Shown: positions 39,776 through 58,291 of the stretch, piece by piece
Position numbering within the stretch: position 1 is the stretch's first letter
Layout of the letters: each line of letters starts with the position of its first letter
Assembly: GCA_020621865.1 (NCBI GenBank)
Contig: JAHRYW010000001.1
Span: forward strand, 267,577 to 331,576
From: Betaproteobacteria bacterium
GTDB taxonomy: Bacteria; Pseudomonadota; Gammaproteobacteria; Burkholderiales; Rhodocyclaceae
Direction of reading: 5' to 3'
Length of the DNA stretch: 64,000 nucleotides
Notes under the pieces: generated by a model
Told to the model about the DNA's origin: nothing
Databases searched by the model: none
What the model saw: only the letters and a program-made list of their open reading frames with translations
Program-made: the position numbers and the translations under genes

Positions 39776-39849
39776 GCGGGCGTCGTATAATGGTAATACC
39801 CTAGCTTCCCAAGCTAGAGCCGTGGGTTCGATTCCCATCGCCCGCTCCA
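39776..39849 (+). tRNA. tRNA-Gly (anticodon CCC)
   Basis: The acceptor GCGGGCG (39776-39782) pairs with CGCCCGC (39839-39845); CCA is encoded at 39847-39849. The anticodon arm is CTAGC-TTCCCAA-GCTAG, giving CCC. The T loop is GGGTTCGATTCCC. It marks the switch from core genes to accessory DNA, a common integration position. Confidence 0.95.
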
Positions 39850-39893
39850 CATCGAATTCAGGCAGGTCGTTGATTGAGACTGGCACCATAATT

Positions 39894-39941
39894 TTGCAGT
39901 GACTGCAAAGATATCGTTCCTGTACAAAGTGCAACGATATC
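39894..39941. promoter_or_regulatory. Two adjacent palindromes downstream of tRNA-Gly
   Basis: TTGCAG-TGA-CTGCAA (39894-39908), then GATATCGTT (39910-39918) with AACGATATC (39933-39941). They look like operator sites for dimeric regulators, or remnants of them; no adjacent gene explains them. Confidence 0.45.
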
Positions 39942-40461: not shown

Positions 40462-41151
40462 TTGCATTTGCAACCTTCTAATGTTTCCACTGCCCGCGTC
40501 GTTCTTGAACCGAACGACGTGATTTCTCGCCTTGCTGGCATTCACCCCTCGCTTGACGAGCAAATGCTATTGGAGGCCAATGCACGTGGATACGAAGCGC
40601 GCCTTGAAGCTACTCCGGCCCACGCCCCGACTGCGGCAGGCACATTGCATTGGCACGCGTTTGTAGCGGCGCTGCGAACTGAACTGACTCACCGCAATTG
40701 GACTATCAAGAACCATAAGAATTGCCCCTTCATTGTCTCCCCCGATAAGGCAATCATGCTGCTGGTTATGACTGGCGACGTGGATACGGGTAAGCAATTC
40801 GGCAATCCGACGAATCAGGCTGACAAGGGAACGGTTCTGGGTGAAGCAGTTGAACATAATCAGCAGTATGATTTGTTTGAAAATTCCGCAGTTACCGCTC
40901 TTGAGCGCGGAAATTCAGGTACGCAGCTATGGGTGCTTCTCTACCACGTTGAACGCGGCGGCTTGAATGACAAGGAGATTCGAACTGAACTGTCGTTGCC
41001 ATCTAAGTTTGGAAAGAAGAAAATCTTGGATTGGTCTGAGCGAATCATTCTTAGTTCGATCCCCCTTGGCCCGCAGGTCGATGTAAATGACCCCATGCCC
41101 TTTATGCCGACAGAACCAATTGACGTCCCTGTTGAGCGTAAAAATGCATAG
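40462..41151 (+). CDS. Hypothetical protein upstream of ImmA-type peptidase
   Basis: A 229-residue soluble protein from a TTG start, SD GGAGAAG. No domain recognised. The middle (TIKNHKNCPFIVSPDKAIMLLVMTGD) looks globular. It is co-directional with the XRE/ImmA gene 17 nt downstream and shares its operator, so it is probably its partner or substrate. Confidence 0.75.
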   Translation: MHLQPSNVSTARVVLEPNDVISRLAGIHPSLDEQMLLEANARGYEARLEATPAHAPTAAGTLHWHAFVAALRTELTHRNWTIKNHKNCPFIVSPDKAIMLLVMTGDVDTGKQFGNPTNQADKGTVLGEAVEHNQQYDLFENSAVTALERGNSGTQLWVLLYHVERGGLNDKEIRTELSLPSKFGKKKILDWSERIILSSIPLGPQVDVNDPMPFMPTEPIDVPVERKNA

Positions 41152-41168
41152 CAACCGCAGTTTTTGAG

Positions 41169-42278
41169 ATGATTAATCCAACTAGACTTGAATTTGCGCG
41201 AACACGTAGAGGCTGGACCAAAACACGCCTAGCGAAAGAGCTTGGTGTTCAGTCTCGTTCAATTCAGGGTTATGAGTCTGGTGAATATGCGCCCGAAGAA
41301 GAGAAACTGGAGCGTATCGCCGAGTTGCTGCGTTTCCCGATGCAGTTTTTCGATGGCAAAGATCTTCCGATCATTGCTGAGCACACTGCAAGTTTTCGGT
41401 CGATGTCCAAAATGTCTGCCGCGCTACGCAATTCTGCATTAGGCGCCGGCACTGTTGCTTTTTTACTAAATGATTGGATCGAGGAACGTTTTACTTTGCC
41501 GCAAGCTGACCTGCCAGATCTCAGTGATCTGTCGCCGGAAGATGCCGCCGCAACTCTCCGACGCATGTGGGGGCAAGGCGAAGCACCGATCAGCAACCTG
41601 ACTCATCTTCTAGAATCACGTGGCATTCGTGTTTATTCCCTGGCGATTGAAGCAAAGGAAGTGGACGCCTTTAGCGTTTGGTATAACTCGAAGCCCTTTG
41701 TGTTCCTGAACACATTCAAGTCTGCAGAACACAGTCGATTTGATGCCGCTCACGAACTCGGGCATCTGGTGCGTGACCGCCACAGCATGCTACATGGTGA
41801 GACCCATAGCCCAGAGATGGAACGCGAAGCGAATGCATTTGCGTCTGCATTCCTTATGCCTCGTGATAGCGTCGTTGCACACAAGCCACGCTTCCCTTCG
41901 TTAGGTCAGTTAATTGAGTTGAAGCGTATCTGGGGTGTTTCCCTTGCTGCGCTGGCGTACCGTATGAATCAGCTAACGCTGCTAACTGAATGGACCTACC
42001 GAAACCTGTGCATCCAGATTGCCAAGCACGGATATCGCACATCTGAACCTAACCCGATTCGGCCGGAAGCCTCCCAAATGCTCGCAAAGGTTTTCGACGC
42101 TTTGCGTTCGGAGGGTGTTCAACGTTCCGATATCGCAAAGGAACTGGCCGTGCACCCGGACGACCTGGATAACCTCACGTTCCGCCTGGCAATTTCTGCC
42201 GTATCTGCTCAAGCAGCAAATACAATCTCAGCAGATGAGCCTCGTCTTCCCACCCAACCACTCAAACTCGTGAAGTAG
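41169..42278 (+). CDS. XRE-HTH / ImmA-IrrE family zinc metallopeptidase
   Basis: A 369-residue protein with an N-terminal Cro/C1-type HTH (LEFARTRRGWTKTRLAKELGVQSRSIQGYESGEYAPEEE, residues about 5-43) fused to a DUF955 peptidase domain with HELGH (DAAHELGHLVRDRH), the HExxH zinc motif. Such proteins cleave repressors to derepress mobile elements or stress genes. Here HTH and peptidase are in one chain, so it may bind the palindromic operator itself. Confidence 0.88.
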   Translation: MINPTRLEFARTRRGWTKTRLAKELGVQSRSIQGYESGEYAPEEEKLERIAELLRFPMQFFDGKDLPIIAEHTASFRSMSKMSAALRNSALGAGTVAFLLNDWIEERFTLPQADLPDLSDLSPEDAAATLRRMWGQGEAPISNLTHLLESRGIRVYSLAIEAKEVDAFSVWYNSKPFVFLNTFKSAEHSRFDAAHELGHLVRDRHSMLHGETHSPEMEREANAFASAFLMPRDSVVAHKPRFPSLGQLIELKRIWGVSLAALAYRMNQLTLLTEWTYRNLCIQIAKHGYRTSEPNPIRPEASQMLAKVFDALRSEGVQRSDIAKELAVHPDDLDNLTFRLAISAVSAQAANTISADEPRLPTQPLKLVK

Positions 42279-42897: not shown

Positions 42898-44034
42898 TTA
42901 GGGTAGCAATGTGCTAAGCACCGTCTGACTCACGGAGTTCGTCTGCCCCTGCCATCCAGTATTCATCGCGACCTGAAAGCCATTTGCGGCAACTGGTGCA
43001 AATGGGTCCCCTAGAATGTTAATGTCGTAGTATCGCAGCGAATTTCCAAACTTACCGAGAGCAATACCTGTAACCGAGGCCGCACCGGCCTTGTTCAAAA
43101 AAGCTGCTGCCACACCGAACGACACGCCGTACGTGGTGCAGTCGTCCACCACAATGACATGCCTTCCCGAAATATTTTTCCTGTACGCGGGATTCAAGTG
43201 GAGACTGACGATCTGCCCGCTCGGATCCGTGCGGTCGACAGAGCCTCCAGCACGTGATCGCTTGATAGATGGCATGTGTCGGATAAAAAGAGGGGCGTTG
43301 CGTTTCGCATACTGCACGCGAGAGACGGTAGTTCGCAGCCTATGGCTAAAGTCACACAGCACATCACTATCGTCGTTCGTGCTATTCGACGAGGGATAGA
43401 CGCCCCAGATCAGATCCTTGACCTGATCCGTACCGTCGATAAGCAATGACCTCGCCGTCAGCGTCAACAAGGCATTCAGGCGGCTGCCCCCGTTCTTGAC
43501 AGTGGCCGTAAGTCGTTGGGCGAAGGCCTGCTGATCGACAGTCTTCCCATACCCGGAGAGGTCCGACAGTGCTTTCACGTTGTATCGCTGCCCATGACCA
43601 TTGAACCACCACTGGCCGGACCAGCCGGCAGTCAGGTTCAAAATCTCCTGGAGCTCGGCGGCGTTAGCTACCTGAATCCCGAGACCGGCTACTTGGCGAT
43701 CCTTCGCCCAACCTCCCGCGACCAATAGCGCTCGGCCATTCTTGCCCATTTGTACGTCATCGGGCTTGGTCGCCAAAACAACGATGTCGTAGGGTTGGAT
43801 TTTAAGGTGCGCCGCATTCTCGCTGACTATCCCGCCTCTCTGACGTCCTGGCGCGTGCAAGTATTGAACACCGCTACCGTCAAACAGTCCATCGAACCAA
43901 GCCGGCTTGCCATGATTGGAAACCAGCCCGACCGGATTACCGGCGGCTCTTCCTGCTTTCAGAACGGCAACGAGTTGCTGATCAGGAATGCCCTGCCGTA
44001 GGAGGGCATCAGGTGACGTAAGTAGCGCAAGCAT
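42898..44034 (-). CDS. Phosphoribosyltransferase-domain protein with HAD-like N-terminus
   Basis: A 378-residue protein. The C-terminal part has the PRPP-binding loop VIVVDDCTTYG (293-303), typical of type I phosphoribosyltransferases such as ComF/Apt. The N-terminal part (PVGLVSNHGKPAWFDGLF; PDDVQMGKNGRALLVAGG) resembles the later HAD motifs but lacks the DxD nucleophile, so it may be a degenerate HAD. Its ATG overlaps the DprA-like stop (TAATG), so the two are translationally coupled. Confidence 0.75.
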   Translation of the reverse strand: MLALLTSPDALLRQGIPDQQLVAVLKAGRAAGNPVGLVSNHGKPAWFDGLFDGSGVQYLHAPGRQRGGIVSENAAHLKIQPYDIVVLATKPDDVQMGKNGRALLVAGGWAKDRQVAGLGIQVANAAELQEILNLTAGWSGQWWFNGHGQRYNVKALSDLSGYGKTVDQQAFAQRLTATVKNGGSRLNALLTLTARSLLIDGTDQVKDLIWGVYPSSNSTNDDSDVLCDFSHRLRTTVSRVQYAKRNAPLFIRHMPSIKRSRAGGSVDRTDPSGQIVSLHLNPAYRKNISGRHVIVVDDCTTYGVSFGVAAAFLNKAGAASVTGIALGKFGNSLRYYDINILGDPFAPVAANGFQVAMNTGWQGQTNSVSQTVLSTLLP

Positions 44035-45716
44035 TAGGGACTATCCTCAAGTTGCTCGTTGGGGACGGACAGAGAAGCGTTGAACCAATTTACAAGGTCA
44101 TCAAAGTCGACTTCCCGGATTGGGGAAGAGTGGCGCAAGATGTTCGATGACCTGTTTTCAACGACCACAGCCGCGAGGTCCGCGCGCAACAAGCTAAAGA
44201 TTTCTTCCGTGCTCTTTTGGGGCGTAGTTTCCGCCGCGAGTTGGAAGAAACTCAACTGACTTTCTGTGGAACGGGCAATCGCGTTTCTAGCACTGATCCA
44301 AGTCTTGAAGTACGAATGTGCGGCCGAGTCGGCCACGGTCCTCATTTGCCACCAGGCGTTCTCGACTGTGAACTGCAGGAACATTGACTTCTCTTCGGAC
44401 ACACTGCCGCCCGATCGCAGCTTGGAGATCTCCTCAAGCTCCTTCTGTAGAAATCTCAGCCGGTATGCAAGATCAATCGCCAATTCAGCGTCGGTGCTGG
44501 ATGCTGTGCTCTTGAAATTTTCGATGGTTGCAAGCACATCGGAAACTGACAGGGCCTTTTGATTTTTCCAGCGGATGTGCAACATTACGTTGCTCTCAAC
44601 GCGTTTCCTCACCGAGGAGATGTGCGATGCCTTCATTATGGAATCTGGCTTGTAAGCATCATCATCCGGTTCGATACGCTGGGGAGCTAGCATTGAATCC
44701 AGCTTTGGAGGGCCTTGGACGAAGGTTTCTTCGTCATTTCCCAGCACGCTCTCCACTGAGGCGGTACTGGCCGGATCGGCTTCAAGAAGTTGCTGGTAGT
44801 CTTCCTTGCTGCGCAGCACCACGATGCGAGACAAAGCAAACTCATCACACCGCAATAGGTCTGTTTTGGGCCCTGGTTTTCCGTCAGCGATCAGCAAATT
44901 CGCCTGAATCTTGGGTTCATCGTTAGCCCGATCACGATCCGTCGGATACGGGACGGCCAGCCATCGGTCGTACTCCAGAGTGGCGCGGGAAGCATGAAGA
45001 CTGCCCCCCTTCAGGTCAGACTGAATCATGACGACGCCGTCAGCCAGGCCTGCTTGGGTTTTATCTCGTTTGACGAACTGTTGGGCTTGGGCCGACTGGC
45101 CGAAAGGGTACTCGCTAACGAGCGCGCCGCCAGACTCAAGAATCCGCTCGGCCAACTCTTTATGCTTCGATGGCGAAATGGTTTGAAGTCCGTGCGCCAG
45201 AACGGCGACCGTGTGACCCCCACATTGAAGTACCGTCTCGTGCGCGATAGCGTCACAGCCCAGCGCGAGACCGCTGATAATACTGGAGCCCTTCTCAGCG
45301 AAGAACTTGGAGACACGTTGCGCAATTTGAATGCCATGCGTGGTCGGCTGCCGCGTACCGATAATCGCGACAGAATGGTTGCCATCCGGGGCCAGCTTGC
45401 CTTTGATGTACAGGATGAAGGGATCGTCCTTCGTTGCCGCCAGCCGGCGAGGGTATTCCGGATCGGCCGCAGAAATAATTCTGGCCCGGGCCATTTCTGC
45501 CGCCTCGATTTGGCGTTCGGCCTTTTCGCAGGCCAGGTACCAAGCATCCGCGACCTCGAGCGACCGCGCAATCTGAGACACTTGGCGCCCCAAAGTAGCC
45601 GGCTTTTCTCCCAAAAAGTTGGGGATCGCCGCCACTTTTCTGAGCGAAGCCGGACCCACGCCCTTCAGCATTGAAAGCGTGAGCAAAAACCTTGTGGCGG
45701 GAGAAATTACGCCCAT
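44034..45716 (-). CDS. DprA/Smf (SLOG)-family protein with C-terminal extension
   Basis: A 560-residue protein. N-terminal SAM/HhH-like region, then a DprA Rossmann domain: YIKGKL, VAIIGTRQPTTHG (about 116-128), GSSIISGLALGCDAIAHE (143-160), VLAHGL and ALVSEYPFGQ. About 330 C-terminal residues are not DprA-like and include long helical segments. Chromosomal DprA is about 370 residues and lacks this part. It sits between two phosphoribosyltransferase genes, with starts and stops touching, which argues for one complex or pathway rather than ordinary transformation DprA. Confidence 0.82.
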   Translation of the reverse strand: MGVISPATRFLLTLSMLKGVGPASLRKVAAIPNFLGEKPATLGRQVSQIARSLEVADAWYLACEKAERQIEAAEMARARIISAADPEYPRRLAATKDDPFILYIKGKLAPDGNHSVAIIGTRQPTTHGIQIAQRVSKFFAEKGSSIISGLALGCDAIAHETVLQCGGHTVAVLAHGLQTISPSKHKELAERILESGGALVSEYPFGQSAQAQQFVKRDKTQAGLADGVVMIQSDLKGGSLHASRATLEYDRWLAVPYPTDRDRANDEPKIQANLLIADGKPGPKTDLLRCDEFALSRIVVLRSKEDYQQLLEADPASTASVESVLGNDEETFVQGPPKLDSMLAPQRIEPDDDAYKPDSIMKASHISSVRKRVESNVMLHIRWKNQKALSVSDVLATIENFKSTASSTDAELAIDLAYRLRFLQKELEEISKLRSGGSVSEEKSMFLQFTVENAWWQMRTVADSAAHSYFKTWISARNAIARSTESQLSFFQLAAETTPQKSTEEIFSLLRADLAAVVVENRSSNILRHSSPIREVDFDDLVNWFNASLSVPNEQLEDSP

Positions 45717-46976
45717 TTATTCCTTCGGCAATATTTCAGAGACATTCTTTGCGAATGCCAAGCGTTTCACTTGGTTGGCACCGCTGTCCTTCAAATACTT
45801 TGCAGCGTAAATCAAAGATGCGCCCGTAGTGACGACATCGTCGATTACGATATAGATGGCGTCGGCTACGATTGTTTTTGGTTGGGCGACAAACAGGTGA
45901 TCGCGGACGTTTTCAAATCGCTCTTTGGCGCCTAAATGCTCGCCATGATTCGATTTTACGCCCTCTTTGTAGGCTAGCAAGCCTGGCGCAGTCGTGACGC
46001 TAATTCGCTTGATGGGATCATCCTTGAAATGCGCATCAAGCTCTGCCAGAAGCGTTTCCAAGCGAGGCTTGCGGCCAGGCCGGTGTGGAATGACGGTAAT
46101 GATAACCTTGGCTTTCTTGAACAGCGATAGCACTTCCAGTTCGCTCTCAATGAAGTGCCGAACCGCGACGATCCAAGCTTCGGGGAAGGAATCGGCCTCC
46201 TTGTTCTCGCCAATGGATTCGGTCAGTTCGTGCCACTTTTGCCGAAACTTCAGCGACTTGTAATTGGCAAATGATCGGCCGCATGCGTAGATGGGATAGG
46301 AAGTGGTGTCGCCGCCTACATCCCTCGGAATGAAATGACCGATTTTGTCGAAGCGATACCCAATATCAAATGGCTTATCGCCCTCCACTAGGAGGCGTTC
46401 CAGCTCAGGAAGGAACCGTTCATGGGAATTGAGCACATCGACGAGAAGTTCCGGCTTAGTGATGATCGCGTCAGGCATCCGCTCCAAAGCTCGCCAATGC
46501 TCAGTTTTTAGCCTGCCTGGCCAGTCGCTCTTGTCGAGCGCCACCAAGCAGCCGCAATGATAGGCGGACCGGATATCCACATCATTGTCTCCGACCACAA
46601 TGACTTCGTTGAGGTACTCGAGCTCGAATTCCGCCATCGCATGATCAATCCCATCTCCGTAGGGCTTGGTCCGTTTTGCATCGTCGTACGAAACAAGAAT
46701 GTCCCATTCGAAGTCAGGATAGGCCCACTCGAGCACGGTTTCGGCGTACCGCCTGGGCGCCCTCGTGAAGACGCCTAACATCAATTCGGGGAAATCGGCC
46801 CTGATTTTCTCCAGCAACTCGCGTGAATAGATCACGCGATCCTCGTCTGCTTCCAATGCCCTAGTGATTTGCCTCAACAACACTTCGGTTGGCTTTTTGC
46901 TCGCTAACCGAAGTTCTTCCAGATCGTCCGTGGAGACCAGCGTGTTGTCGAGATCGAATAGGCACAGACGGAACAT
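45717..46976 (-). CDS. HAD hydrolase fused to phosphoribosyltransferase
   Basis: A 419-residue protein. An N-terminal HAD domain with nucleophile motif LFDLDNTLVST (residues 6-16), motif II FTRAPRRYAE and motif IV VVGDNDVDIRSA is followed by a C-terminal phosphoribosyltransferase with the PRPP loop YIVIDDVVTTGASL. It is the first gene of the operon; the DprA-like ATG follows its stop directly. It is likely to act on nucleotide or PRPP-derived metabolites. Confidence 0.82.
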   Translation of the reverse strand: MFRLCLFDLDNTLVSTDDLEELRLASKKPTEVLLRQITRALEADEDRVIYSRELLEKIRADFPELMLGVFTRAPRRYAETVLEWAYPDFEWDILVSYDDAKRTKPYGDGIDHAMAEFELEYLNEVIVVGDNDVDIRSAYHCGCLVALDKSDWPGRLKTEHWRALERMPDAIITKPELLVDVLNSHERFLPELERLLVEGDKPFDIGYRFDKIGHFIPRDVGGDTTSYPIYACGRSFANYKSLKFRQKWHELTESIGENKEADSFPEAWIVAVRHFIESELEVLSLFKKAKVIITVIPHRPGRKPRLETLLAELDAHFKDDPIKRISVTTAPGLLAYKEGVKSNHGEHLGAKERFENVRDHLFVAQPKTIVADAIYIVIDDVVTTGASLIYAAKYLKDSGANQVKRLAFAKNVSEILPKE

Positions 46977-52689: not shown

Positions 52690-54093
52690 TTACGATGGTT
52701 CGGGCATTTCTTTCTGGCTGTGGTTATCGTATGTGAGCGCATCTTTGTATTTGTCCAAAACTTCAAGGGCAGCTCTCCTAATCTCTGCATCTGCAAACGG
52801 TAGCCCCTGTTTTTCCAAGGCTTTTCCGATCTTTCTTCGGCTGATTGGCCGCGGTTCAGACAGCATATTTTCAGTAATCTCTTTTGTTTTCTTGATTTTT
52901 TCGGCTCGCTTGTGCGCTGTATTAATTGAGATCACTTGGCGGCGTCGTTTTGCCGCCTGCCGACAGAGGTCGGGGAAGTGATATAGCAAAAAGCGAAGCT
53001 TGATGCCAAGTGCCTCAGAAATCTCCGGTTGCGAAAGGGGGGGATCGGATTCTAAAAGACCTATTAAACGCTCTCTCAGAGTTCTAAGTTCTTCGTGGCT
53101 CAGTTTAACTTTGGGTTTGCTTGTTGTTTTGTTCAAATATTTGTTGATATGAGTAACTTCCGACGAAATTTCTTCTGTAAGCAGCTGAAGAGGCATTTTT
53201 TGTAATCGGAAACACAATTCCAAAAACGTTTCCATGCGGGGCCGGATCATTTTGTTTTTCCAGTTAGCGATCATGTGCCGGCTGAATCCTAAATCCTTCT
53301 CAAAGAAAGACATTTTGCCGTCACTTAGAACTTCGCAATATTGATCTACACGGGCGACCAAGAGTTCACGGGAAGCAATTTGTTCAGCCCTTGAGTTATT
53401 GGCAACAATTTGTTCAATGGCGGCAGTCATGAATTTATCTCGAATAGATATTTCCTTGGTTTGCTTAGTGCTGGTATTGCTTATGGCAGGGGTTCCCAAC
53501 CAAGCTCCGCAGTGGGTGCAATAGCCGAGCATTGCATGTGGTGCTACAAAGGCCTGGCATTTGCCGCATGCTGAACAGGTATCTTCTAGATGGCACTGAT
53601 GGCTGCTGCATATTCGCGTCGCTCGGAGATACCAAAGCAACGGGTAGTAAATTTCAGAGCCGGCTTGGTCAAATTCGTCCAGGCACATTGGACAAATTCC
53701 TACGTGATCACGAAGCAGTCCCGATCCTTTGGGGTCAAGGAGATCTCGCCAAGGAAGGAGTGTGAGATTTTTAAGATTTGCTCGCTGAGTTAACTTCTCA
53801 AGCGCGTTGCTAAATCGAGCGGCATAGTTGACGTATGAATTAATAGTCCGCGAATACCCATAGCTGAAGCTACTTAACGATGTTTCGAAACTAAGGTCAG
53901 TCATTGGCACTATGATTGATTTAACCAGGATATGAGGCCTTACTACATGCTTATATGCAAGTCGGGTCATGTAAGAAATCAAGGCTTCACATTTCGGCGT
54001 ATCGATCCCTTTGGGTTCGAGGGAAACCAGCCTGGAGCGAGTAGGAATTTCGACTGAAGGGATTTCGAATGATTCAAGAAGCTCAAGCTGCAT
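52690..54093 (-). CDS. TniQ/TnsD-family target-selection protein
   Basis: A 467-residue transposition protein from the ATG at 54093 (SD GGGGGAG; overlaps tnsC by 11 nt). A longer frame from 54189 would overlap tnsC by 107 nt. Zinc-finger cysteines CPMCLDEF, CSSHQCHLEDTCSACGKCQ and CTHCGAWLG define the TniQ domain. The C-terminal region has HTH-like segments (FFEKDLGFSRHMIANWKNKM), as in TnsD, which binds a fixed attachment site. The target here is unknown. Confidence 0.85.
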   Translation of the reverse strand: MQLELLESFEIPSVEIPTRSRLVSLEPKGIDTPKCEALISYMTRLAYKHVVRPHILVKSIIVPMTDLSFETSLSSFSYGYSRTINSYVNYAARFSNALEKLTQRANLKNLTLLPWRDLLDPKGSGLLRDHVGICPMCLDEFDQAGSEIYYPLLWYLRATRICSSHQCHLEDTCSACGKCQAFVAPHAMLGYCTHCGAWLGTPAISNTSTKQTKEISIRDKFMTAAIEQIVANNSRAEQIASRELLVARVDQYCEVLSDGKMSFFEKDLGFSRHMIANWKNKMIRPRMETFLELCFRLQKMPLQLLTEEISSEVTHINKYLNKTTSKPKVKLSHEELRTLRERLIGLLESDPPLSQPEISEALGIKLRFLLYHFPDLCRQAAKRRRQVISINTAHKRAEKIKKTKEITENMLSEPRPISRRKIGKALEKQGLPFADAEIRRAALEVLDKYKDALTYDNHSQKEMPEPS

Positions 54094-55261
54094 GTGGCAC
54101 TCCCCCCACAGGATCTCTACTGGGGCCACGTGTCCCAGGACGTTTTTGACCTCTATTCGACTTTTTTGCGGCAGTTCCCTCTTGATCATCAGCAGAATGG
54201 AAATTTTTTGTGATTACATCGAGCGACGGTGTTATCTTCAGCCCTAATTCACGAGCAATTTCGTCGTCTGCTATATCTTCTAATTGAGCTTCCCCTTTCT
54301 TCGTTTCCGTAATCATTAACTTTAACGATTTATTGCTCCATCGAGTGGATTCAAGTATTTCTCTAGTCAAAATACGTTGCTCGGACATCAAGGCCTTCCA
54401 CAATGCACGTTTGAACCATTTTTTTAGTAGCCCAATCGTGCCGAGAGAGTTTTGAAAAAAATAATCAATGTGCTCAATCAGATCATCTTCTTTCTGGATT
54501 GGCATTCCCTCCAGAAGGCTAAAGACACAATTTATAAATGCCATCCCATAGGGGTTTTTCGGATCAGAAAACTCTCTTGTCGAATAGCTCGAAAAATGAA
54601 TTACCTCAGTGCGCCGCGTTAACTGTCCGTTCAGTTCAAGTATGCGCAGCAGGGTGTAGTCTCCCGCTAAAATTATTGGTATGTGAAGCTCTTGAGCAAT
54701 GCTTTTGATGATTTCAAACTGGACTCTTGCTGGGATAGAGGTTTTTGTAATTAGCATATGTCCTGCTTCGTCAAGCAGGAGATATTTTGTGTTCCTATGG
54801 ACGAAGGCATTCCGAACAGCTCGGCGTAATTCTTCGCGAACCAGAAATCTGATTGTAGATATGATTTCCCCATTCAGAAGAGCTTCCGGATGAAGGATGA
54901 CTTTTCTCTTTATGAGAACATCATTGAATTTTTCGAGTAACCGGGAAAAAAAATCTTTCCAGTTGAAATTACCATCCTGAGGGGACGCCAGCTGCACGTA
55001 GATGACCGGAATCATCCCCGGATCTTTGTCCATTTCGACCTTATAGCGATTGAAGATATCTGCCTCAAGACGTCTTAATAATGTCGATTTACCGCACCCG
55101 GATGGACCGACCAGCAAATATAATTCTTCGACATTTTCTGGCTCTTGATTGATGACCCATACGAGGCTGTCGTAGGCTTCCTTGAGTTTTAGATGCGCCA
55201 CTTGCTTGCTGTGGTACTTGCGAATAATTGCGACGGGATCTAGGGATATATCGGTGCTCAT
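54083..55261 (-). CDS. tnsC: TnsC-like AAA+ transposition regulator
   Basis: A 392-residue AAA+ ATPase. Walker A is LLVGPSGCGKSTLLRRL and Walker B KYLLLDEAGHML; sensor residues lie in IILAGDYTLLRIL. It connects TniQ to the transposase and checks target sites. The gene lies between TnsAB and TniQ in the usual order, and its ATG is directly after the TnsAB stop. Confidence 0.88.
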   Translation of the reverse strand: MSTDISLDPVAIIRKYHSKQVAHLKLKEAYDSLVWVINQEPENVEELYLLVGPSGCGKSTLLRRLEADIFNRYKVEMDKDPGMIPVIYVQLASPQDGNFNWKDFFSRLLEKFNDVLIKRKVILHPEALLNGEIISTIRFLVREELRRAVRNAFVHRNTKYLLLDEAGHMLITKTSIPARVQFEIIKSIAQELHIPIILAGDYTLLRILELNGQLTRRTEVIHFSSYSTREFSDPKNPYGMAFINCVFSLLEGMPIQKEDDLIEHIDYFFQNSLGTIGLLKKWFKRALWKALMSEQRILTREILESTRWSNKSLKLMITETKKGEAQLEDIADDEIARELGLKITPSLDVITKNFHSADDQEGTAAKKSNRGQKRPGTRGPSRDPVGGVPHAA

Positions 55262-55264
55262 GAG

Positions 55265-57931
55265 TTAGAAGTCCTCAAGCAGTTTTGGGGCGGCGAAGGT
55301 GGGCAATAACTTTGGACTAACTGCATTCGCAACCGAGACCTTGCCCTCCTTTGGAGTATTGATTGCCGTATTGGCACTCGAACTTTCGCTATCCATTTGT
55401 CGTTGTAAATCGAGTACTTCGTTAGCTTCCGCACTTATCAGAAAACTCGCCAAATTTTGCGCGTTTATCGTGATGTGCAGCCCCAACAACTTGGCTTTCA
55501 ATCGCAGATGATTTGTTGAGATGCGAATCTGCTTTTCGGTGTAGTCTTTAAATATTGCGTAATACTCGGAGTAACAGATCTCCCAAGCTCTGTTAATAAA
55601 TACATATGCAATCCCGAAATTTGCAGGGTCGTAACGCACATCAAGACGAGTACCCCTCACCCCTGGAAGGTCCATCTCTGTACATCGGTAGTAGAGGTAA
55701 TTAATTTTGACCCCTTTGGCCGTGACCTTGGCTGTTCCCTTCGATGTTGATGGGCAGGTCAAAATAATTAGCGTTTGTGTATAGCTAAAAAATGAATGGC
55801 TTCTCTCTCCAAACGTTTGAATGCCCTGTACAAGTGCAGTTTTTGGACTATGTCCCAAGGTGCTGTGAGTATTTGTGTGGTAGACATTCGACAGGTATTC
55901 CTGAAGCCTTACCAATAGTCGCTCGTAGGTCCATACCGCCTTAAGCGAAGGGTCGACATCTCGCCCGATTTGCCGTGGGTTCATGTCGTTGGTCGCACCA
56001 AGCAGATTCGATATGAACTGATCTATCGTCGTTTGAAAGATGCGCTCGACCACTGAGCCAAATTTTGGTTTGCCTTTGGGGCGGTCCTTTTTGTGGCTTT
56101 CTAGACGGCTAATCAGTGTCTCAAAGTAGATTGATTGAAAATCGGGGCCGTTATCGACAACAATCCAATGGGGAATACGCCCATGACAACGGATGCACTC
56201 GCGAATCACCATCATGCAGCTGCGATAGGATGGTGGGTCAAAGCTTAAATATATAGCCAAGACATAACGGCTAAAGGCGTCAATCAATAGTGTGAGCCAG
56301 ATTGTCTGTAGCGTGTGTTTTCCCGAGTTGGAGCGGGTTTTTATTGGAAGCGGTGTGTGATCAATATGCCCAATGTGGAATGGTCGGTTGCCGTGGCGAG
56401 GTGTGGTGTATTCGAGGACTAAGTAGGGTGGTTCTTCGTTGTAGGCAGCCTTTTCGCCAACACGTCCTTTGGTCTGTTCGTGTGACTGGTGCTTTTTGAT
56501 CATTTTTCCAAATGATCTGAGACTTAGCGGCGTTACGGCTTGCTCTTCACATACATTCAAATAGATGCCATGACAAAGCGTGGCAGATCTTTGAGCATCA
56601 GTATTCCAGTATTTGGTATAGACATTGATGGCGAGCTCGTAGGCTTGAGGGTCACATTTTTGTTTGTGGTTTCCCTGCGTTCCGTGCCGATCGGGTATCA
56701 GTCCGACGAATCCAATGCCAAATTCGATTTGGGCAGCGCGATAGCTTGCCAACCAGTACGCAATTGATCTGCTCTGGTTTTTTGTCAGTGGGTTGTCTTG
56801 ATCAGGGGTTCCGAACAATATTTGATAGCGCCAGTTGGCGGTCTGGAGCTGGGCGGTTGTAGTGCTTCGGAAAAATTTATCTGCAAGCTTTGCTCGAGGA
56901 TCTTCTCCCTCCGCAAACGGAACGATTTTTCCATTTCGGGCAAGCGCGTGAAGATGCTCGTATTTCAATTCAATGATTGGTAGCTCCTCCCGGTTGAGAG
57001 GTATGGCGCTAATGCCATTTACTCCTGCGTTGACGATTTGCCAAGATCTACCATCCCACTCAAATCGCCGGCCCGGAGAAGGATCGAAGGAAGCGATGCT
57101 AGGCGTCTTAAGACCAACGCTGGTGTACGCAATGGTCTGATATGCCGTTGCACTGACCCCATCTCGGAACAATAGAGCTTGATCAGGGTTCGAAATGCGG
57201 TTGGTTTGAAAGTCAAAATAGACTTTCTTGGTTACGATTAGTCCATAAAGACTGTCTGAGTCGACCGGTTCAGGACCAAAAATCAGATCGTTTACAGTCA
57301 GCCAACTCGACTCCGATAGCCGCCCTTCGATAATCCTGAGCGCATCTGGTGAAATTTTCAGCTCGGATGGAGGTACCTTCAAATAATCGCAAAAGAACTC
57401 GTAGTTCTCGAGCGCGATCCAGTTATTGTCTTTAGACGATCTGACGATAAATTTGCAGCCAAGCTTTTGGGCAGCAATTTCGGCGGGGGGGCTCCGCCAG
57501 TTTCCGTGCTCATCAACTGTAAAGCGATTGGGCTGAGCCTGAGCGAGCTGCAGCAGATCCGCTTCAGTTTTGCACTCCACAAAAAAGAGAGAGTCCTGGC
57601 CGATGGCAAAAATATCTGGGGTGATTTCAGGATGGACGGGCTTGCCATTGGGATTGATGTAATCAATTCGCAGCCGGCAGGGCTGACTATAGAATTCATA
57701 AATTAAGTCGTCGTTTTCAAATTCTTCAAAAGCGGCATATTCGGTATTGAAGGCTTCTGCCTCGAGCACGAACCCCATTTTTATAGAACTAAATCTGCAC
57801 GGGGTATTTTTTGTGCCGCCTCCGACCGAACGGATTGGCGCATTTTTTCGGATCCAGCGGATTTTATGGCGTGCCTCTGTAGCGGTACCTAGGCGATCAA
57901 ACAGGTTTTCAAGTGCAATATCTTCCAGCAT
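55265..57931 (-). CDS. TnsA-TnsB fusion transposase (Tn7-like)
   Basis: An 888-residue fused transposase. The N-terminal 200 residues form a TnsA-like restriction-endonuclease fold: EYAAFEEFENDDLIYEFYSQP, then the metal motif TPDIFAIGQDSLFFVECK. A helical DNA-binding region follows, then an rve/DDE domain with Asp in LLIDAFSRYVLA, Asp in WIVVDNGPDFQS and Glu in SVVERIFQTT, and a Mu-type C-terminal barrel. The fusion cuts both strands (TnsA 5' and TnsB 3'), giving cut-and-paste movement. The ATG at 57931 has GGAGGAG 5 nt upstream. Codon use is AT-rich relative to the core genes. Confidence 0.9.
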   Translation of the reverse strand: MLEDIALENLFDRLGTATEARHKIRWIRKNAPIRSVGGGTKNTPCRFSSIKMGFVLEAEAFNTEYAAFEEFENDDLIYEFYSQPCRLRIDYINPNGKPVHPEITPDIFAIGQDSLFFVECKTEADLLQLAQAQPNRFTVDEHGNWRSPPAEIAAQKLGCKFIVRSSKDNNWIALENYEFFCDYLKVPPSELKISPDALRIIEGRLSESSWLTVNDLIFGPEPVDSDSLYGLIVTKKVYFDFQTNRISNPDQALLFRDGVSATAYQTIAYTSVGLKTPSIASFDPSPGRRFEWDGRSWQIVNAGVNGISAIPLNREELPIIELKYEHLHALARNGKIVPFAEGEDPRAKLADKFFRSTTTAQLQTANWRYQILFGTPDQDNPLTKNQSRSIAYWLASYRAAQIEFGIGFVGLIPDRHGTQGNHKQKCDPQAYELAINVYTKYWNTDAQRSATLCHGIYLNVCEEQAVTPLSLRSFGKMIKKHQSHEQTKGRVGEKAAYNEEPPYLVLEYTTPRHGNRPFHIGHIDHTPLPIKTRSNSGKHTLQTIWLTLLIDAFSRYVLAIYLSFDPPSYRSCMMVIRECIRCHGRIPHWIVVDNGPDFQSIYFETLISRLESHKKDRPKGKPKFGSVVERIFQTTIDQFISNLLGATNDMNPRQIGRDVDPSLKAVWTYERLLVRLQEYLSNVYHTNTHSTLGHSPKTALVQGIQTFGERSHSFFSYTQTLIILTCPSTSKGTAKVTAKGVKINYLYYRCTEMDLPGVRGTRLDVRYDPANFGIAYVFINRAWEICYSEYYAIFKDYTEKQIRISTNHLRLKAKLLGLHITINAQNLASFLISAEANEVLDLQRQMDSESSSANTAINTPKEGKVSVANAVSPKLLPTFAAPKLLEDF

Positions 57932-58291
57932 CAGCTCCTCCAAAGAGCGGGTTGGGGCACTAACCTCAAGGACGTCAGTGCAACATGAACAAATGGAGTG
58001 GCGATCAGGCGTGATTCGGCCTAATTTCGTCGGGCTGATGGCTTCTAATGAATGTGCGAGAGGGAGGGCATGGTTGGCTCCTTGAACAAACTAACGCTTG
58101 AGGGCCAGAGAGGTGCGCACTAGGACAAACTACGAGCGTACCTGCGCGATTGCCCCCCTTGACGATAGGGGGCAACTGCGTAAAATGAAGCCAGTCCCGA
58201 GTCCAATCGGATGACTTCAACGGCCCGAGCGTTCCCGCGCTTTTTGGGCCGTTTTTCTTTTCTCTGATTGTTGTTTAGCTATCTTTTGAGG
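57932..58291. other. Non-coding region upstream of TnsAB with repeats and hairpin
   Basis: 360 bp. It contains three direct GRACAAAY words (57988-57995, 58084-58091, 58123-58130), candidate TnsB-binding sites of a transposon end. A hairpin TTGCCCCC/GGGGGCAA lies at 58150-58175. I could not identify a definite TGT/ACA terminus. Confidence 0.45.
58219..58260 (+). terminator. Intrinsic terminator on plus strand
   Basis: AACGGCCC (58219-58226) pairs with GGGCCGTT (58246-58253), followed by TTTTCTTTT. No upstream plus-strand gene is visible, so the terminated transcript may be a small RNA or the end of a gene interrupted by the transposon. Confidence 0.65.

What the first reader, a model, noticed from the sequence alone, without database searches (positions are those of the whole stretch)
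42898..46976. Coupled HAD-PRTase / DprA-like / PRTase operon: candidate new conflict system
Three minus-strand genes with touching or overlapping stops and starts encode a HAD-phosphoribosyltransferase fusion, a 560-residue DprA/SLOG protein with a large non-DprA C-terminus, and a second phosphoribosyltransferase with a HAD-like N-terminus. SLOG and PRTase domains handle nucleotides and have been predicted in nucleotide-based immunity. The locus is in accessory DNA near restriction-modification, SOS and transposition genes. A route in which PRPP- or nucleotide-derived metabolites are made, sensed and dephosphorylated is conceivable.
Basis: partly seen in the sequence, partly recalled or inferred. 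Interest (0 to 1): 0.75.

Follow-up and report, generated by a model that had tools for sequence, protein, structure and literature searches.

The report
Three-gene ShosTA-type phage-defence module
The three linked genes are a rare three-gene version of ShosTA, an already known bacterial toxin-antitoxin that protects against phages, here with two different toxin-like enzymes around one DNA-linked antitoxin-like protein.

Summary
In detail: three minus-strand genes, touching or overlapping by one base, encode an HAD-phosphoribosyltransferase (PRTase, 419 aa), a DprA-like protein (560 aa) and a second HAD-like PRTase (378 aa). "New conflict system" does not hold: the 378-aa and 560-aa proteins match PADLOC ShosT and ShosA (5.6e-44, 1.4e-89), and the best solved match of the 378-aa model is ShosT. 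ShosTA is a published phage-defence toxin-antitoxin. The unusual part is the extra gene. PRTases of both types usually pair alone with DprA (20 of 21 viral loci). Where an HAD is present, type I mostly keeps its active site and type II (ShosT proper) has lost it. The window joins type I, one DprA and type II; the same order occurs at three other loci, each incomplete in the held record. Its DprA belongs with type I partners. The locus lies in a defence-rich island at a tRNA-Gly hotspot. Best reading: a two-effector ShosTA acting by PRPP/purine poisoning. Defence, toxicity and control of both PRTases by one DprA are inferred, not shown.

The parts
45717..46976 (-). First gene: type I HAD-PRTase, 419 aa; intact HAD motifs (DLDNT, T, K, GDxxxD) and PRPP motif (DDVVTTG)
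   Evidence: only a distant ShosT match in PADLOC (1e-7)
44781..45716 (-). Second gene, residues 1-312: DprA-like core (ShosA-like)
   Evidence: Pfam DNA_processg_A 1.6e-54; PADLOC ShosA 1.4e-89; block pLDDT 81-97 over residues 1-310; PDB 3maj and 8zva ShosA
44034..44780 (-). Second gene, residues 313-560: low-confidence linker then low-confidence helices; no known family
   Evidence: long C-termini also in two-gene relatives L005 (577 aa), L049 (494 aa), L050 (432 aa), so not specific to the three-gene form
42898..44034 (-). Third gene: type II PRTase = ShosT proper, 378 aa; pseudo-HAD N-terminus (motifs I and IV lost), PRPP acidic pair kept (DDCTTYG)
   Evidence: PADLOC ShosT 5.6e-44; Foldseek 8zvd ShosT 2.5e-18; phmmer 8zvb 2.3e-7; residue table
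39776..39849 (+). tRNA-Gly(ccc), left border of the island; its 3' end plus 25 bp recurs 43.6 kb downstream (window-scale coordinate 83466-83512, beyond the window)
   Evidence: same repeat in same-genus genomes
40462..42278 (+). Neighbouring RmrT/RmrA toxin-antitoxin pair (not part of the operon; opposite strand)
   Evidence: PADLOC RmrT 1.5e-58, RmrA 4.8e-155; same subfamily models next to a type I locus in L050

Best explanation
It is a three-gene, two-effector variant of the ShosTA toxin-antitoxin phage-defence system, carried in a defence island. The DprA-like protein is the antitoxin and DNA-linked sensor. The two PRTases are effectors that act on PRPP and so on purine nucleotides. In uninfected cells the DprA-like protein restrains or offsets them; when a phage disturbs replication or transcription the balance is lost, nucleotide pools are poisoned, the chromosome is damaged and the infected cell stops or dies. 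Shown here: gene order and co-occurrence; family membership of the 560-aa and 378-aa proteins; PRPP acidic pair kept in both PRTases; intact HAD motifs in one and lost HAD motifs in the other; DprA of type I descent. Taken from published ShosTA/RqlHI work, seen as passages: PRTase toxicity, antitoxin role of the DprA-like protein, phage triggers. Inferred: that both PRTases are effectors and that one DprA controls both.
For: PADLOC ShosT 5.6e-44 and ShosA 1.4e-89. The 378-aa model's three best PDB matches are solved ShosT 8zvd/8zvc/8zvb (best E 2.5e-18); sequence alone finds ShosT (2.3e-7). The DprA protein finds ShosA 8zva (2.7e-25; fold 1.2e-14). In viral contigs fetched with PRTase queries, 20 of 21 loci have a DprA gene overlapping or within 50 bp (several are near copies; six of the 21 are short PRTases without HAD that match the type I profile only weakly). 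In plasmids the HAD-PRTase hits 3 records: two have DprA beside it (in L006 with a broken frame) and the third is an HAD-DprA fusion without PRTase; of 25 records hit by the 378-aa protein I opened 5, and 5 of 5 have DprA next to it. PRPP acidic pair kept in 17 of 17 type I and 10 of 10 type II rows. Published, passages only: a DprA-PRTase pair protects against T7 and lambda (PMC9122126); in RqlHI toxicity needs the PRTase domain and the DprA-like protein limits it (PMC4670107); ShosT disturbs purine metabolism with DNA duplications and filamentation (PMC12593503). The island holds RmrTA, type I R and S genes, AbiD and others; the same tRNA-Gly site in congeners holds DarTG, DRT1a and type I R-M genes.
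Against: The 419-aa HAD-PRTase is only a distant ShosT relative (PADLOC 1e-7) and finds no ShosT in the PDB by sequence. None of the three other three-gene loci is intact in the held record: L003's third gene stops matching after residue 44, L004's after residue 282 some 100 bp from the contig end, L006's DprA is frame-broken. [quoted passage not shown] Close relatives are very rare: only the window's own genome in 398 phylum, 369 class (type II query A2) and 399 order genomes (type I query A1); no congener carries it among the five searched. No toxicity or defence data exist for this locus.
Confidence: 0.66

Rival explanations
1. Only one PRTase is the effector. The other is a partner or regulator, for example in a mixed complex, so the three genes make one toxin complex and one antitoxin rather than two toxins.
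For: The two PRTases differ in HAD chemistry: motifs complete in 15 of 17 type I rows, DxDxT in 0 of 10 type II rows. Only one DprA is kept and it is of type I descent, so the type II protein arrived without its usual partner.
Against: Both keep the PRPP acidic pair, and relatives of each stand as the only PRTase beside a DprA.
Confidence: 0.18
2. One reading: a PRPP- or nucleotide-derived messenger is made by one PRTase, sensed by the SLOG fold of DprA and removed by the HAD phosphatase.
For: The type I HAD motifs are intact. SLOG domains respond to nucleotide signals in Thoeris ThsA (PMC11204291, start of abstract seen in the listing).
Against: For the closest studied relatives the summaries seen speak of nucleotide-pool poisoning and DNA damage (PMC12593503; PMC4670107). 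The second HAD looks dead.
Confidence: 0.1
3. A DNA-uptake or recombination accessory locus (DprA plus ComF-like PRTases) rather than defence.
For: The PRTases weakly match the ComF model (1.8e-4 and 8.9e-7); DprA and ComFC act in natural transformation (PMC9005727, start of abstract in the listing; DprA role recalled and).
Against: A second DprA-family gene with a stronger Pfam match lies elsewhere in the genome (269 against 188 bits). The window protein scores 172 bits, below the 191-bit cut-off for DprA. Known neighbours are defence and mobile-element genes.
Confidence: 0.03
4. A decaying or chance assembly: a type I ShosTA-like pair beside a stranded type II gene with no joint function.
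For: The three-gene form is rare and every other example is incomplete in the held record.
Against: Same order at four loci in different hosts; the third gene is full length in the window and in L006 and conserved at 65-66%; junctions are tight in the window.
Confidence: 0.1

Closest known systems
ShosTA (ShosT PRTase + ShosA DprA-like; PDB 8zva-8zvd, 9vzo, 9w2p/q; Pu et al. 2025, Nat Commun 16:3141, not held, seen only as a reference entry)
   Same: ShosA-like DprA protein and a ShosT protein with the same fold; in the one alignment seen solved ShosT also lacks the GD of HAD motif IV
   Different: One extra gene, a type I HAD-PRTase with intact HAD motifs; DprA of another subfamily with a long C-terminus (560 aa against 318-331 aa in the solved entries)
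Two-gene HAD-PRTase + DprA pairs such as Pf phage PfAC02a ShosT/ShosA (OR790968, L040)
   Same: Type I HAD-PRTase followed by a DprA; DprA in the same supported clade
   Different: No type II gene; the Pf PRTase carries C-terminal zinc ribbons and its DprA is short
DprA-PRTase defence system of P2-like phages (PMC9122126)
   Same: DprA with a PRTase, reported there to protect against T7 and lambda (passage)
   Different: Two genes; not compared at sequence level here
RqlHI / PsyrTA
   Same: DprA-like antitoxin with a PRTase-bearing toxin (PMC4670107, passages)
   Different: RqlH is a RecQ-like helicase with a C-terminal PRTase; no helicase here

Membership tests
ShosTA | DprA-family ShosA next to a PRTase-bearing ShosT | tested here: met
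ShosTA | 560-aa protein homologous to ShosA | tested here: met
   PADLOC 1.4e-89; PDB ShosA 8zva 2.7e-25 over residues 79-256
ShosTA | 378-aa protein homologous to ShosT, pseudo-HAD plus PRTase | tested here: met
   PADLOC 5.6e-44; Foldseek 8zvd 2.5e-18, model pLDDT only 66; phmmer 2.3e-7; residues
ShosTA | 419-aa HAD-PRTase is a ShosT | tested here: inconclusive
   PADLOC only 1e-7, no ShosT in PDB search; but its Pf relative is annotated ShosT
ShosTA | two genes only | tested here: not met
   three genes; order seen at four loci; filed as a variant, not as standard ShosTA
ShosTA | toxicity of ShosT relieved by ShosA; protection against phage | not testable with these tools
   needs bench work
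RqlHI / PsyrTA | RecQ-like helicase fused to the PRTase | tested here: not met
   no helicase in Pfam or NCBIfam scans
Canonical competence DprA | meets the DprA equivalog cut-off and is the genome's best DprA | tested here: not met
   172 bits against cut-off 191; a stronger DprA-family match lies at C3:220204-220809

The most novel reading that the evidence does not exclude
One DprA-like protein guards two chemically different PRTase effectors at once: a live-HAD PRTase and a dead-HAD PRTase (ShosT). The HAD of the first may process the product of the second, or the two may form one mixed enzyme. This would be a composite toxin-antitoxin built by merging two ShosTA lineages, widening the trigger or target range and resisting phage escape.
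Probability: 0.3. Interest if true: 0.58.

Novelty: new variant of a known kind. Interest (0 to 1): 0.38.

Why it matters
ShosTA has solved structures, but in the text I could read the role of its HAD part is not explained. A natural operon holding a live-HAD and a dead-HAD PRTase around one DprA makes that testable in one strain: which domain kills, which one the DprA protein recognises, and whether the HAD phosphatase changes the outcome. It also suggests that ShosTA-type modules can merge and share an antitoxin.

Tried and rejected
Rejected: competence locus (second DprA-family gene elsewhere; below-cut-off score). Rejected: helicase-PRTase (PsyrTA/RqlHI) membership. Rejected: a C-terminal domain specific to the three-gene form, because two-gene relatives also have long C-termini.

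Led nowhere: viral scan with the DprA alignment A3 (no relatives); phage search with the 378-aa protein (no match); class search with the whole DprA protein, where every match outside the window's own gene is at most 132 bits and covers the DprA core only. PADLOC ShosT search of 398 phylum genomes: 52 match at 1e-10; three are strong (2.7e-53, 8.3e-48 and the window's own 1.9e-43); the other 49 range from 3e-16 to 9e-11 and were not inspected. The two other strong ones are a type II PRTase with DprA (L051) and a short PRTase with DprA (L052); the narrow A2 query had missed L051 in the same sample, so my rarity figures are for close relatives only. Promoter and terminator scan gave no more than shuffles within one sd.

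Rows dropped: the residue table used 17 type I and 10 type II rows; left out were near copies L090 and L092, the short PRTases L052 and L097-L102, the split L042, and the incomplete third genes of L003 and L004. The DprA tree has long branches; L095 falls outside the type I group and four type II DprAs outside the main type II group. L006's DprA was left out of the tree because its frame is broken. The tree's 'canonical_dprA' row is a 242-aa piece cut by my script from L001 and may not be the right frame; I do not use it. An earlier count said the HAD nucleophile is lost in 10 of 10 type II rows; the table shows that L044 keeps the first Asp, so the correct statement is that 0 of 10 has DxDxT.
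Full report
What is there. Stop and start touch at the first junction and share one base at the second.

What the proteins are. PADLOC names the 560-aa protein ShosA (1.4e-89) and the 378-aa protein ShosT (5.6e-44); the 419-aa protein reaches ShosT only at 1e-7. The predicted model of the 378-aa protein is of moderate quality (mean pLDDT 66), yet its three best PDB matches are the three solved ShosT entries (best E 2.5e-18), followed by HAD phosphatases; sequence alone also finds ShosT (2.3e-7). The DprA protein finds DprA 3maj and ShosA 8zva. Residues 1-310 have block pLDDT of 81-97, 314-390 are under 50 and the rest are low-confidence helices. The 419-aa protein has no ShosT match in the PDB by sequence.

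Two PRTase types. I aligned 17 type I rows (like the 419-aa protein) and 10 type II rows (like the 378-aa protein); rows left out are listed under Tried and rejected. In type I the HAD motifs (DxDxT, Lys, GDxxxD) are complete in 15 of 17; of the other two, L094 begins at a contig end and L095 lacks motif I. In type II none of 10 has DxDxT (L044 keeps the first Asp) and none has the GD of motif IV, so the HAD is read as a dead fold. In the alignment solved ShosT also lacks that GD. The PRPP acidic pair is kept in 17 of 17 and 10 of 10.

Co-occurrence. Scans of viral contigs with PRTase queries gave 21 distinct contigs, 17 by type I and 4 by type II queries; in 20 of 21 a DprA gene lies beside the PRTase, overlapping or within 50 bp (the exception is L102). 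Six of the 17 (L097-L102) are short PRTases (170-208 aa) without HAD that match the type I profile at only 40-52 bits. Some loci are near copies, and two rows of the broader type I query (L005, L009) had first been found by DprA, so the set is not fully independent. Within the fetched stretches (up to 5-6 kb on each side) none of the 21 carries both types. The commonest type I order is PRTase then DprA and the commonest type II order DprA then PRTase, with exceptions both ways. The window joins both around one DprA. The same three-gene order occurs in a proteobacterial MAG (L003), Bordetella petrii (L004) and a Rhizobium beringeri plasmid (L006), but L003 matches only the first 44 residues of the third gene, L004 the first 282 up to about 100 bp from the contig end, and L006 has a broken DprA frame in that record. 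L005 (Pseudomonas sichuanensis) has only type I plus DprA.

Origin. In a tree of 31 rows the DprA of the three three-gene loci with an unbroken DprA (window, L003, L004) falls in a supported group with 12 of the 13 type I DprAs and two rows of no group (96/87); five of nine type II DprAs, those of the closest type II PRTases among them, form a separate group (100/100). Long branches make the other type II rows uncertain. So the composite looks like a type I pair that gained a type II ShosT without its DprA. Whether it arose once is not settled: the three rows need 1-2 changes over the bootstrap trees.

Rarity. With narrow queries, type II was found in 1 of 398 phylum and 1 of 369 class genomes, type I in 1 of 399 order genomes, the five same-genus genomes listed having none; each single hit is the window's own genome. 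The broader PADLOC ShosT profile found two further strong ShosT genes in the 398 phylum genomes, both two-gene pairs with DprA: L051 (type II) and L052 (short PRTase). tblastn at 1e-5: type I query in 3 and type II query in 25 of 72,556 plasmid records, and in 1 and 0 of 50,697 phage records; one of the 3 plasmid hits is an HAD-DprA fusion without PRTase.

Surroundings. G+C falls from 65% to 51% at the tRNA-Gly. The last bases of that tRNA plus 25 bp recur as a 47-bp, 85% direct repeat 43.6 kb downstream (E 1.4e-9). In same-genus genomes G1078, G1026 and G943 the same repeat recurs about 29, 14 and 15 kb from the tRNA; in G1053 it is on another contig; in G842 the match runs straight through and the downstream flank lies 4.3 kb on, which I read as a nearly empty site. 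Of ten proteins chosen from the insertions of G943, G1026 and G1078, nine match PADLOC: DarT, DarG and type I M, S and R (G943), DRT1a, a type I R and a partial HEC-05 match (G1026), SngA (G1078). The window's island holds RmrTA and a type I R gene, SRAP and UmuC, a peptidase S24 (UmuD-like) protein and a TniQ/TniB/transposase set and, further right, a type I specificity gene, AbiD and an Mrr-like protein and a DUF3644 protein. I read this as a defence island.

Mechanism. [quoted passage not shown] A DprA-PRTase pair protects against T7 and lambda (PMC9122126, passages). Phage SSB is named as an activator of ShosTA in PMC10732053 (passages). A review says ShosT is a phosphoribosyl transferase and pyrophosphatase that disturbs purine metabolism and causes DNA duplications and filamentation, that ShosA binds DNA and likely promotes recombination, and that T7 Gp0.7 is a trigger (PMC12593503, passages). 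The primary paper (Pu et al. 2025) is not held; I saw only its reference entry and the PDB titles. I apply this to the window by homology: a DprA-like antitoxin and two PRPP-acting effectors. That both PRTases are effectors, and that one DprA serves both, is inference.

Novelty. Ten paper searches, most with ShosTA, DprA, PRTase or HAD terms, listed nothing whose title or abstract start describes a three-gene ShosTA; the listings were capped, I read passages of eight papers only, and subscription papers and most preprints were not covered. I rate it a new variant of a known kind.

Noticed in passing
window 40462-42278 and L050 8675-10556: RmrTA with the same best PADLOC models (RmrA PDLC03949, RmrT PDLC03935) sits next to a type I HAD-PRTase/DprA locus in both the window and a viral contig; two cases only.
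   Followed up: partly
window 39875-39910 and window-scale 68927-68962 (L081 5004-5039): A 36-bp, 81% inverted repeat (E 0.001) begins 25 bp after the tRNA-Gly and ends near a second TniQ/TniB set, with TGAT on the outer side of both; possible ends of a Tn7-like transposon (genes at 52690-57943) inside the island.
   Followed up: partly
tRNA-Gly hotspot in G943, G1026, G1078 (L118, L119, L121, L122): The same tRNA site holds different defence cargo in congeners: DarTG with type I R-M, DRT1a, SngA; an integrase-like ORF lies right after the tRNA in G943 (named from its sequence by eye, not scanned).
   Followed up: partly
window-scale coordinates 74703-75765 and 83668-84731 (in L081 and L081/L082): A 1.06-kb, 89% identical direct repeat holding a 224-aa membrane-protein-like gene lies on both sides of the second repeat of the tRNA end, which suggests a duplication or tandem elements.
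   Followed up: no
L008 4389-5807: In Deinococcus wulumuqiensis plasmid pDrdI an HAD domain is fused directly to a DprA domain, with no PRTase domain found in that protein by Pfam.
   Followed up: no
L004 3394-6713: In Bordetella petrii a SIR2-type short Argonaute pair lies directly upstream of the three-gene locus.
   Followed up: yes
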